The position numbers and the translations under genes were made by a program. This document shows, one piece after another, positions 4,982 through 8,276 of a stretch of DNA of 64,000 bases. Position 1 is the stretch's first letter. Each line of letters opens with the position of its first letter. The stretch is taken from the NCBI RefSeq assembly GCF_025231485.1, contig NZ_CP104003.1:620001-684000 (forward strand), in the 5' to 3' direction. The stretch comes from Salinirubellus salinus (GTDB taxonomy: Archaea; Halobacteriota; Halobacteria; Halobacteriales; Haloarculaceae). The notes beneath the pieces were generated by a model. The model searched no databases and was not told the origin of the DNA. It saw only the letters and a list, made by a program, of their open reading frames with translations.

Positions 4982-5536
4982 TCACTCCTCGCCGTCGAGG
5001 TCCTCGACCGGCACCACCCGCTTCCCCGTCTCCATCGGGAGGACGCGGCTCTCCCCGCCCTCCCACTCGCGGTCGAGTTCCCGGCCGTCGAACAGGTGGT
5101 CGAGGAAGACGGCGAGTCCCGCCACCTCGGAGTGCGGCTGGTTCGTCACGCCGACGTTGTAGTCCGCGGCGTCGTAGACGTCGAACGGCACCTTCTGCGA
5201 CCCGACGACGACGAGGACCGGGTCGGCCCGGTGGGCCGCTCGGATCTCCTCCTCCACGTCCTGCACCCGTTCGCCGTACATCGTCAGGTGGACGACGACG
5301 CCCGACCAGTCCCGCAGGAGGGGCCGCCACGAGTCGGAGAGTTCCACCTCGAACGGGCCGCCGAAGCGGGCGGTGATGTCCTCAATGGTACCCTTCGACT
5401 TCGAGGCGTTCCCGGCGATGACGACGCGGTCCGCACCGAGTGCCCGCGCGGTCAGGCCGACGTGGGTGGTCATCCGGTTGTCCCGCCCCGGTCGGTGACC
5501 GAGACGGAGCACGCACACCTCCGGGGAGCCTTGCAT
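4982..5536 (-). CDS. trm56: tRNA (cytidine-56-2'-O)-methyltransferase Trm56
   Basis: A 184-residue SPOUT-class enzyme that methylates the 2'-OH of C56 in the tRNA T-loop using S-adenosylmethionine; an archaea-specific modification. The diagnostic N-terminal block [18 protein letters not shown] is present, followed by ARALGADRV, and the knot region with [14 protein letters not shown] and [15 protein letters not shown]. The ATG at 5536 keeps the LRLGHRP block that a later methionine would lose. It is the first gene of a minus-strand run with srp19, gar1 and the presenilin protease, and is divergent from the epimerase at 5631 (94-bp spacer). Confidence 0.93.
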
Positions 5537-5630
5537 GTCCTGTCTCTCTCGCGTGGGCGTGGAAAAGCGGCGCGGTGTCGGTGCGTCACGGGACCAGAAC
5601 GCACTTGCCACGCGGAGACGCCGATTGGGC

Positions 5631-6578
5631 ATGGAACTCTCCGACGCGACGGTCCTCGTCACCGGCGGCGCGGGGTTCGTGGGTTCGCACCTCGTCGACC
5701 ACCTCCTCCCCGACAACGAGGTCCGCGTGGTGGACGACCTGCACAACGCCCGGCGCGAGTGGGTCCCCGACGGTGCCGACCTGTACGAGGGGGACGTGAC
5801 CGACCCCGCGGTGCTGGACGAGGCGCTGACCGAGGACGTGGACGTGGTCTTCCACTTCGCGGCGGACAAGTCCGCGGCCCGCGACGACATCGAGCAGTTC
5901 CGCGGTAACAACGCGCTGACCGAGGCCGTCGTCGCACGGATGGACGAGGTGGGCGTGACGGACGTCGCGTTCACGTCCTCGTCGGTGGTCTACGGCGAGG
6001 CTCCTCGTCCGACCCCGGAGGACTACGCGCCGCTCGAACCCATCTCCATCTACGGCGCCTCGAAACTGGCCGAGGAGTCGCTGCTCTCGGTCTACGCGCA
6101 CAGCCACGGGTTCCGGGTCTGGAACTTCCGGTTCGCGAACATCGTCGGCCCGCGACTGCAGAAGGGCGCCGTGGTCCCGGACTTCATCGAGAAACTCCGT
6201 ACCGACCCGGAGACGCTGGAGATCCTCGGGGACGGCCGGCAGGAGAAGTCCTACATGCACGTCGAGGAGTGCGTCGAGGCGATGTGTCACGTCGTCGAAC
6301 ACGCCGACGCACCGGTGAACACGTACAACCTCGGCACCCGGACGACCACCTCGGTGACCACCATCGCCGACATCGTGAGCGACGAGCTGGGCCTCTCGCC
6401 CGACTACGAGTTCACCGGTGGTGACCGTGGCTGGACGGGCGACGTCCCCCGGATGCGGCTCTCCATCGAGAAACTGAGCGCGCTGGGGTACGAACCGGAG
6501 CAGTCCAGCGACGACGCGGTCCGTCAGTGCGTGCGCGAACTCCTCGACGAGGGTGTGTTCGACGCGAGTGAGGACTGA
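5631..6578 (+). CDS. NAD-dependent sugar epimerase/dehydratase (extended SDR)
   Basis: A 315-residue extended short-chain dehydrogenase of the UDP-glucose 4-epimerase type. The cofactor motif GGAGFVG is at 12-18, catalytic Ser around 117-118, and YxxxK at Y141/K145; HFAADKS (75-81) corresponds to the usual HLAA motif. A role in nucleotide-sugar supply for glycans or lipids is likely, but the sugar substrate is not visible. The ATG at 5631 directly precedes the nucleotide-binding strand, as in the family. A second epimerase lies at 53012. The 3' end faces the inhibitor gene across a hairpin-rich repeat element. Confidence 0.88.
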   Translation: MELSDATVLVTGGAGFVGSHLVDHLLPDNEVRVVDDLHNARREWVPDGADLYEGDVTDPAVLDEALTEDVDVVFHFAADKSAARDDIEQFRGNNALTEAVVARMDEVGVTDVAFTSSSVVYGEAPRPTPEDYAPLEPISIYGASKLAEESLLSVYAHSHGFRVWNFRFANIVGPRLQKGAVVPDFIEKLRTDPETLEILGDGRQEKSYMHVEECVEAMCHVVEHADAPVNTYNLGTRTTTSVTTIADIVSDELGLSPDYEFTGGDRGWTGDVPRMRLSIEKLSALGYEPEQSSDDAVRQCVRELLDEGVFDASED

Positions 6579-6585
6579 GAAGAGG

Positions 6586-6745
6586 CTGGAGACTGCGGTA
6601 GCGCGGTGCGGACTGCGGTACACCGGCGTACCCACCCGCGCCGGAGGGGGCGAAGCCCCCGATGGCGCGCCCTTTTGGATCCAAAGTTTTGCCGCGAGTC
6701 CGGCGCGGCTCTGCCGCGCCGCACGAGCGTGGAAACGTTTGGTCT
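6586..6745 (-). repeat. Convergent-intergenic hairpin repeat, copy 1
   Basis: This fills the space between two converging genes. Read on the minus strand it begins AGACCAAAC at the stop codon of the inhibitor gene. It contains a stem GGCGCGGC/GCCGCGCC with triloop (6702-6720), the perfect 12-base palindrome TTTGGATCCAAA (6674-6685) and a GGGGGC/GCCCCC stem with triloop (6646-6660). It ends in a region with the direct repeat GACTGCGGTA (6591-6600 and 6611-6620). The order AGACCAAAC - hairpin - CTCGCG - A-rich - TTTGGATCCAAA is the same as in copy 2 at 39587. It may act as a bidirectional terminator or a small RNA source. Confidence 0.7.
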
Positions 6746-7073
6746 AGACCGAGAAGGGCGTCCGCGACCCCACGTCCTGGTCCACCGCCCGTAACTCCGC
6801 CTCGGCGGTGTAGTCGCCGGGGGTCGGGTCGGGCCACGACTCCGTGAACGTCGCCGCCTGACCCGGCTGCAGGTCGGAGTACTGGAGGGCCTGCATGAAC
6901 ATCCGGCCGTCCGACCAGCGCCACACCTCCTCGCCGTCGTCGGTGTAGACGGCGAAGTCCGCCCGGCCGGAGTCACGGAAGGTGAGCTCGACGGTCTCGC
7001 CGGAAGCGTTCACGACGTTGAATCGGAGCCGCACCTCCGCGCCGACGGTCACCTCCAGCGAACTCTCGAGCAT
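6744..7073 (-). CDS. BsuPI-type intracellular proteinase inhibitor
   Basis: A 109-residue beta-rich protein of the BsuPI family, named after the Bacillus intracellular inhibitor of subtilisin-like proteases. The family pattern is clear: LRFNVVNASGE, LTFRDSGRADFAVY, the EEVWRWSDGRMF block with its signature Trp-Arg-Trp (about 50-61), and the LQPGQAATFTESW segment. No signal peptide is visible, so it should stay in the cytosol. It lies 57 bp downstream of, and on the same strand as, the exported subtilase gene, which suggests a protease-inhibitor pair. An ACATTTGT segment about 30 nt before the ATG could give it a promoter of its own. Confidence 0.8.
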   Translation of the reverse strand: MLESSLEVTVGAEVRLRFNVVNASGETVELTFRDSGRADFAVYTDDGEEVWRWSDGRMFMQALQYSDLQPGQAATFTESWPDPTPGDYTAEAELRAVDQDVGSRTPFSV

Positions 7074-7130
7074 ACCCACCGTTGGCTGTCCTCGTACAAA
7101 TGTCTACGTCGGACGAGGGGGTCGGGGGCG

Positions 7131-8276
7131 CTACCGGTCGTCGCGCGAGTCGACGCCGAGCGCGGCCGCCACGTCGAGCAGCCCGGCGCCGGACTCGTCG
7201 CGTCCGAGGCCGACGTCCTCCGCGGTCGCCTGCAGCCGTTGGCGTGCCTCGTCGTTGGTCAGGCCGCGCGCCAGCAACTGTGCGGCGGCTCCGGAGACGT
7301 GTGGGCACGCCATGGAGGTGCCCGAGCGCGTCGTGCAGGCCCCGCCCACGTCGGTCGAGTAGACGCCATCGCCGGGGGCGGCGAGGTCGACGCCCCGGCC
7401 GGCCGACGAGAACGACGCGAGCGAGTCGTCGCGCCGGGTCGCGCTCACCGCCACCGTCTCGTCGTACCACGCGGGGGCGTCGAGACAGCCGGTGCAGGGG
7501 CCACCGTTCCCCGCCGCGGCGACGAGGAGGACGCCCCGGTCGTGGGCGTAGGCACAGTCCTCCCGGAGCGTGGTCGTGTCGCCGCCGCCGAGGCTGAGCG
7601 AGGCCACGTCGACGCCCGCGTCGCCGGCGTACTGGACGGCCGCAGCGATGTCCGAGGTGAGCCCGACGCCCACCGCGTTCAGCGTCTTGTAGGCGTGGAG
7701 TTCCACGTCGGGCGCGACGCCGACGACGCCCGCGTCGTCGTCACGCGCGCCGACGATACCCGCGCAGTGCGTGCCGTGACCGTTGTCGTCCTGTCCACCG
7801 GGGACGCCCGTCACGCCGCCGACGAACGCCCGACTCGCTAGCGCGTTCACCGGGAGGTCGGGGTGCGCGAGGTCGATCCCCGTATCCACGACGACGACCG
7901 TCGCGTCGGCCCCCGTCGCGCCCCGTGCGTGGGCCACCTCGGCGTCCACCCGGTCGACGCCCCACGGGAGCGTCTGCGCCGTCGCCGTCAACTCCACGTC
8001 CGGTTCGACGAAGCGCACCCCGGAGCGGCCGGCCAGCTCCGCGGCGACGGCCGTCGGGGTCCGGAGCGTGACAACGTCGAACGCGAACTCGCGGACCACG
8101 TCGCCCGCCCGCCGGAGTCGTGTGAGCACCGACCGGTCGGAGTACCCGACGTTCACCTGCACCGTCTCGGTGGCGTCTCCCGTCACCTCGGCCTCGGCGG
8201 CACCGGTGACTCCGGCCCCCAGTAGACCGGCCCCCAGGGCACCCAGCACCCGTCGACGACTGGCGTTCGGCGGCAT
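7131..8276 (-). CDS. Secreted subtilisin-like serine protease (S8, halolysin type)
   Basis: A 381-residue subtilase. The Tat signal is SRRRVLGALG (residues 6-15) followed by a hydrophobic Ala/Gly stretch. Residues about 35-95 form an I9-like propeptide, then comes the catalytic domain with D131 (VVVDTGID), H167 (NGHGTHCAG), oxyanion N257 (AAAGNGG) and S321 (SGTSMACPHVSG). It lacks the C-terminal extension found in many halolysins and ends soon after the catalytic fold. The ATG at 8276 starts the Tat peptide directly; an upstream in-frame start would bury it. It is followed by the BsuPI inhibitor gene and is divergent from the DUF2797 gene. Confidence 0.95.
   Translation of the reverse strand: MPPNASRRRVLGALGAGLLGAGVTGAAEAEVTGDATETVQVNVGYSDRSVLTRLRRAGDVVREFAFDVVTLRTPTAVAAELAGRSGVRFVEPDVELTATAQTLPWGVDRVDAEVAHARGATGADATVVVVDTGIDLAHPDLPVNALASRAFVGGVTGVPGGQDDNGHGTHCAGIVGARDDDAGVVGVAPDVELHAYKTLNAVGVGLTSDIAAAVQYAGDAGVDVASLSLGGGDTTTLREDCAYAHDRGVLLVAAAGNGGPCTGCLDAPAWYDETVAVSATRRDDSLASFSSAGRGVDLAAPGDGVYSTDVGGACTTRSGTSMACPHVSGAAAQLLARGLTNDEARQRLQATAEDVGLGRDESGAGLLDVAAALGVDSRDDR

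What the first reader, a model, noticed from the sequence alone, without database searches (positions are those of the whole stretch)
6744..8276. Tat-exported subtilase and a cytosolic BsuPI-type inhibitor in one transcript direction
The subtilase (7131-8276) has a Tat signal, so it should fold before export and could become active in the cytosol. Directly downstream (57 bp, same strand) lies a BsuPI-family protein without signal peptide. Bacillus BsuPI inhibits intracellular subtilisins. Together they would make a built-in safety device: the inhibitor silences the folded protease until it leaves the cell. Pairing by position is seen; the partnership is inferred. I do not recall this pair being described in haloarchaea.
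Basis: partly seen in the sequence, partly recalled or inferred. Interest (0 to 1): 0.7.

Follow-up and report, generated by a model that had tools for sequence, protein, structure and literature searches.

The report
Tat-exported subtilase with cytosolic inhibitor
A salt-loving archaeon carries a protein-digesting enzyme that is folded inside the cell before export, next to a gene for a likely inhibitor that stays inside; the same pairing recurs across many haloarchaea, although the one paper on this inhibitor family said such neighbours do not occur.

Summary
In detail: an S8 subtilase (7131-8276, -) with a Tat signal is followed after 57 bp by a signal-less BsuPI protein (6744-7073, -). The pairing is not chance. 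Of 150 haloarchaeal BsuPI loci, 42 have a same-strand S8 gene in the flank, 40 of them upstream (median gap 86 bp), in 7 of 8 families. The linked S8s form one class: invariant twin arginine, I9-type propeptide, intact triad, no halolysin C-terminal extension. That class occurs almost only with BsuPI: 71 of 72 genomes at E<=1e-160, against a base rate of 212/391; the one exception has a frameshifted BsuPI beside its S8. At least 12 genomes keep both genes apart. BsuPI folds like B. subtilis IPI (3isy, TM 0.91), and the segment docked into subtilisin's active site is nearly invariant. BsuPI appears to have its own promoter, so the pair is probably not one operon. Published work says no IPI gene lies near a subtilisin gene and doubts that the family inhibits at all. 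Best reading: a cytosolic cognate inhibitor that restrains a subtilase maturing before Tat export. Inhibition itself is untested.

The parts
7131..8276 (-). Tat-exported S8A subtilase without C-terminal extension: Tat signal (res. ~1-29), I9-type propeptide (res. ~37-98), catalytic domain (Asp131, His167, Ser321)
   Evidence: PF00082 163 bits; savinase 1q5p E 2.6e-56; R7, R8, D131, H167, S321 invariant in 18 diverse linked homologues; model matches pro-subtilisin E 3whi over 358 columns, TM 0.83
6744..7073 (-). BsuPI (PF12690) single-domain protein, no signal peptide, 12.1 kDa, pI 4.1; putative cognate inhibitor
   Evidence: PF12690 106 bits; 3isy by sequence E 3.8e-8 and by fold TM 0.91; pLDDT 97
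6885..6908 (-). Wedge-loop segment GRMFMQAL of BsuPI, residues 56-63 (F59 invariant, Q61 = docked P1 position), putative protease-binding edge
   Evidence: Aligned to IPI residues 62-68, the docked inhibitory stretch of Rigden et al.; F 148/148, Q 135/148 or M 13/148
7074..7130 (-). Intergenic stretch with a promoter-like A/T-rich box ('acatttgta', A/T at -28 to -25 of the BsuPI ATG)
   Evidence: Position-specific A/T enrichment in 29 closely linked loci: 80% against 32% background at -28 to -25; same pattern at unlinked loci
5631..6578 (+). NAD-dependent epimerase, convergent with BsuPI; conserved downstream neighbour (context, not part of the pair)
   Evidence: the homologous neighbour cluster is found at BsuPI loci of all 8 families sampled

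Best explanation
The two genes are a protease and its cognate intracellular inhibitor. The subtilase is made with a Tat signal, so it folds in the cytosol with its I9-type propeptide; propeptide autocleavage can then release active protease inside the cell. BsuPI stays in the cytosol and binds reversibly across the active-site cleft of enzyme that has matured too early or failed to export, through its conserved wedge loop (GRMF[A/T/M]Q). Exported enzyme leaves the inhibitor behind and is active outside. Shown here: recurrent pairing, co-occurrence, signal and propeptide anatomy, no signal on BsuPI, conserved docking segment, separate promoter-like boxes. Inferred: binding, inhibition, reversibility and the protective role.
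For: Linkage: 42 of 150 BsuPI loci have a same-strand S8, 40 upstream, median gap 86 bp, families f1 7/19, f2 1/3, f3 6/80, f4 19/25, f6 5/5, f7 3/5, f8 1/11; chance expectation about 0.12 of 150, from 7 S8 genes in the own genome (ignores kinship). Uniform S8 class: 59 of 60 linked S8s show RR at the expected place, about 120 aa before the catalytic Asp, no extension in most. Dependence: 65/65 genomes with the class at E<=1e-170 have BsuPI and 71/72 at 1e-160, base rate 212/391; the exception G389 has a frameshifted BsuPI next to its S8. Within genus g34, three genomes have both and the other listed ones lack both. 12 genomes in which BsuPI is not near the S8 still have BsuPI. Fold: 3isy TM 0.91. 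Docked segment nearly invariant. Need: a Tat-signal mutant of halolysin SptA accumulated active enzyme in cells, followed by cell death (PMC6085418). Location contrast: the bacterial (Gemmatimonadota) homologues carry lipoprotein signals, haloarchaeal ones do not.
Against: No binding or inhibition was tested. BsuPI occurs without this S8 class in many genomes (141 of 212 at the 1e-160 threshold), so it may have other targets or roles. Other Tat subtilases, including several in the same genome and S8 enzymes in BsuPI-less genomes, manage without it. Natrinema gari carries BsuPI, yet active SptA was seen inside Natrinema sp. J7-2 cells, so BsuPI does not restrain every Tat subtilase at all times. 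The S8 propeptide is already an inhibitor. The A2 profile was built from linked S8s, which favours BsuPI-positive genomes at strict thresholds.
Confidence: 0.66

Rival explanations
1. BsuPI is an export chaperone or proofreading factor of the Tat-subtilase: it binds the folded precursor to keep it soluble and export-competent, without being primarily an inhibitor.
For: Same genomic evidence; IPI's Ig-like fold suits general protein binding, and Rigden et al. raise non-specific binding as an alternative.
Against: The conserved surface is the segment that fits a protease active-site cleft, with Phe and Gln/Met at substrate-like positions; B. subtilis IPI was reported to inhibit Isp1 with a Ki of the order of 1e-9 M.
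Confidence: 0.13
2. BsuPI is a general intracellular inhibitor (or binder) with other targets, such as other Tat subtilases or signal-less subtilases; the neighbouring S8 is one of several clients and adjacency is partly a relic.
For: BsuPI is present without the S8 class in many genomes, Natrialbaceae above all, and its downstream neighbour (epimerase) is conserved whether or not an S8 is present. The adjacency state changes at least 16 times on the BsuPI tree.
Against: The S8 class itself is almost never found without BsuPI, which an incidental client would not show.
Confidence: 0.15
3. Adjacency is inherited hitch-hiking: an old gene order kept by descent without functional interaction.
For: Linked loci cluster by family.
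Against: Same order in 7 families despite many changes of state; co-occurrence persists when genes are unlinked; within-genus co-segregation in g34.
Confidence: 0.06

Closest known systems
Bacillus subtilis IPI / BsuPI with intracellular subtilisin Isp1 (Pfam PF12690; former MEROPS I22; PDB 3ISY)
   Same: Same inhibitor family and fold (TM 0.91), same MF-x-Q segment; target is an S8A subtilisin.
   Different: In Bacillus the target is an intracellular subtilisin with an 18-residue propeptide and the genes are reported not to be adjacent; extended IPI has a possible signal peptide. Here the target would be a Tat-exported enzyme with an I9-type propeptide, adjacent in many genomes, and the inhibitor has no signal.
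Halolysins (SptA, HlyR4, Nep)
   Same: Haloarchaeal S8 proteases with Tat signal and N-terminal propeptide; SptA can self-activate inside the cell.
   Different: Halolysins have a C-terminal extension; the window enzyme ends about 60 aa after Ser321. No inhibitor gene is described for them in the papers read.
NSI, intracellular subtilisin inhibitor of Natrialba magadii
   Same: A biochemically detected intracellular inhibitor of a subtilase in a haloarchaeon; the genome carries a 12.8 kDa BsuPI (L029).
   Different: Its gene was never assigned; the identity with BsuPI is a guess here.

Membership tests
BsuPI / IPI (PF12690) | Profile match over the curated cut-off | tested here: met
   106.1 bits, cut-off 22.9
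BsuPI / IPI (PF12690) | IPI Ig-like fold | tested here: met
   3isy top Foldseek hit, TM 0.91, E 6.7e-10; next hit 2.2e-4
BsuPI / IPI (PF12690) | Conserved wedge loop with the docked inhibitory segment (IPI 62-68) | tested here: met
   KMFTQAF aligns with RMFMQAL; F 148/148, Q/M 148/148
BsuPI / IPI (PF12690) | Inhibits subtilisins | not testable with these tools
   Needs biochemistry; MEROPS removed I22 for lack of clarity
S8A subtilisin | Asp/His/Ser triad | tested here: met
   D131, H167, S321 invariant in A2
S8A subtilisin | I9-type propeptide | tested here: met
   beta-alpha-beta-beta-alpha-beta pattern in residues 38-92; top match is unprocessed pro-subtilisin E over 358 columns; Pfam I9 itself not detected at 0.001
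Halolysin | Tat signal | tested here: met
   SRRRVLG plus uncharged stretch; RR invariant in A2; no dedicated predictor was run
Halolysin | C-terminal extension | tested here: not met
   Chain ends 60 residues after Ser321
Protease-inhibitor operon | Shared transcript | tested here: inconclusive
   57 bp gap, same strand; promoter-like boxes upstream of both genes in linked loci; no transcript data

The most novel reading that the evidence does not exclude
Haloarchaea evolved a dedicated cytosolic restraint for folded-export proteases: in this lineage BsuPI is an intracellular antitoxin-like partner without which the extension-less Tat subtilases are not tolerated, while in bacteria, where subtilisins leave unfolded through Sec, relatives of the same inhibitor are exported lipoproteins. 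Inhibitor location would follow the export route of the protease.
Probability: 0.4. Interest if true: 0.78.

Novelty: new variant of a known kind. Interest (0 to 1): 0.62.

Why it matters
Whether the BsuPI/IPI family is a true inhibitor family has been open since MEROPS dropped it, and the main paper on it took the absence of subtilisin neighbours as evidence against a shared operon or regulon. A repeated, near-obligate pairing with one protease class gives a defined cognate target for a test. It also suggests how cells can make a folded, self-activating protease in the cytosol before Tat export, a danger already shown for SptA, and offers a candidate gene for the unassigned NSI of Natrialba magadii.

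Tried and rejected
All-against-all BLAST of every ORF near BsuPI timed out because of spurious high-GC ORFs and was redone with coding filters. The idea that BsuPI replaces a missing propeptide was rejected: the model shows an I9-like prodomain. Chance adjacency was rejected by the census. A strict operon was downgraded after promoter-like boxes appeared. G389 first looked like a counter-example (S8 class without BsuPI) but has a frameshifted BsuPI next door. A complex of both proteins could not be predicted with the tools on hand. No BsuPI was seen next to S8 in about 20 Gemmatimonadota loci.

Full report
Observation. The S8 gene runs 8276 to 7131 on the minus strand (381 aa, PF00082 163 bits) and the BsuPI gene 7073 to 6744 (109 aa, PF12690 106 bits), with 57 bp between them. 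The S8 begins MPPNASRRRVLGALGAGLLGAGVTGAAEA, a Tat-type signal by inspection; no dedicated predictor was run. BsuPI begins at its domain and has no signal.

Anatomy of the protease. By sequence the catalytic domain is closest to savinase-type subtilisins. The AlphaFold model (pLDDT 81; the signal region is disordered) shows a beta-alpha-beta-beta-alpha-beta domain at residues 38-92, and its best match is unprocessed pro-subtilisin E over 358 columns, TM 0.83. So the enzyme has its own I9-type propeptide, although the Pfam I9 model does not reach threshold. The chain ends about 60 residues after Ser321: it lacks the C-terminal extension that is part of halolysins.

Anatomy of BsuPI. The model (pLDDT 97) matches B. 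subtilis IPI, 3isy, at TM 0.91, far ahead of anything else. Rigden et al. docked IPI residues 62-68 into the subtilisin cleft (PMC3901451). The aligned segment in 148 haloarchaeal proteins has Phe in 148 and Gln (135) or Met (13) at the proposed P1 position.

Recurrence. BsuPI occurs in 212 of 391 Halobacteria genomes, nearly always once. I fetched 150 loci. 42 have a same-strand S8 in the flank and 40 of these have it upstream, with a median gap of 86 bp; 13 have two or more S8 genes. By family: f1 7/19, f2 1/3, f3 6/80, f4 19/25, f6 5/5, f7 3/5, f8 1/11, f9 0/2. The own genome has about 7 S8 genes, so chance would give about 0.12 such loci in 150; this estimate ignores kinship. The adjacency state changes at least 16 times on the BsuPI tree, a poorly resolved tree of 114 columns. 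Named organisms with the pair include Halostella pelagica, Halorarius litoreus, Haloglomus halophilum, Halapricum hydrolyticum, Halobium salinum, Haloprofundus marisrubri and two Halegenticoccus species.

One protease class. Among 60 linked S8 proteins (some loci were fetched twice), 59 show the twin arginine at the expected place and nearly all have an intact GTS motif and no extension. In 18 diverse members the two arginines and the triad are invariant. A few long forms (L170, L171) and broken copies (L166) exist.

Dependence. A profile of this class was searched in the same 391 genomes. At E<=1e-170, 65 of 65 genomes with a hit have BsuPI; at 1e-160, 71 of 72. The exception, G389, is 82% complete and has a frameshifted BsuPI directly downstream of its S8. 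The reverse does not hold: 141 BsuPI genomes lack a hit at 1e-160. In genus g34 three genomes have both genes and the other listed ones have neither (G155, the nearest, has a 713-aa frame). In 12 genomes checked, the class S8 has no BsuPI within about 3 kb, yet the genome has BsuPI elsewhere. Caveats: the profile was trained on linked S8s, and genomes are not independent.

Transcription. Upstream of the BsuPI ATG there is a peak of A/T at -28 to -25 (80% against 32% background in 29 closely linked loci), with further peaks at -34/-33 and -10, and the same pattern at unlinked loci. From general knowledge this is the layout of haloarchaeal leaderless promoters. S8 genes have their own A/T-rich box near -30 in the set as a whole. 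A separate supply of inhibitor would suit a safety role, but no transcript data were available.

Literature. Rigden et al. wrote that in none of the completely sequenced species is the IPI gene close to a subtilisin gene and that the family left MEROPS because inhibition was uncertain. The newer sample overturns the general statement. The danger to be contained is documented: with a mutated Tat signal, halolysin SptA accumulated as active enzyme inside cells and the cells died (Du et al. 2015, as described in PMC6085418). A full-text search found no paper on BsuPI in haloarchaea besides Rigden et al.; the library holds open-licence papers only.

Location contrast. About 20 Gemmatimonadota homologues carry a lipobox (such as LAFAC-GP) before the domain, and extended B. 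subtilis IPI has a possible signal peptide, while the haloarchaeal proteins start at the domain. In the Sec route subtilisins cross unfolded, in the Tat route folded; the placement of the inhibitor would follow. This is inference. For about two thirds of the haloarchaeal loci the reading frame stays open more than 25 codons upstream of the chosen ATG, so absence of a signal there rests on start choice and promoter position; the window frame closes within about 10 codons upstream.

Verdict. A real, recurrent, near-obligate partnership of a Tat-exported, extension-less subtilase with a cytosolic BsuPI protein. Inhibition is the most likely function and is directly testable.

Noticed in passing
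   Followed up: partly
L198, L202, L204, L205, L213, L215, L217, L220, L221, L223, L225-L228, L230, L231, L233, L234, L236, L239: Gemmatimonadota BsuPI proteins carry lipoprotein-type signals; no S8 was found within the fetched flanks.
   Followed up: partly
L095, L126, L138, L139: Some linked S8 copies in family f6 have GTSxA[TA]AH in place of GTSMACP around the catalytic Ser, next to a canonical copy in tandem.
   Followed up: no
L240:2342-2935: BsuPI split over two frames directly downstream of the S8 in an 82% complete genome: frameshift or sequencing error.
   Followed up: no
window 4982-6578: A tRNA 2'-O-methylase-like gene and an NAD-dependent epimerase form a conserved block downstream of BsuPI in most non-Natrialbaceae families; in Natrialbaceae a CbiX-like gene takes this place.
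   Followed up: partly
G000:C1:975263-976144: A second Tat subtilase without long extension (L152) in the own genome does not belong to the BsuPI-linked class at E<=1e-60.
   Followed up: no
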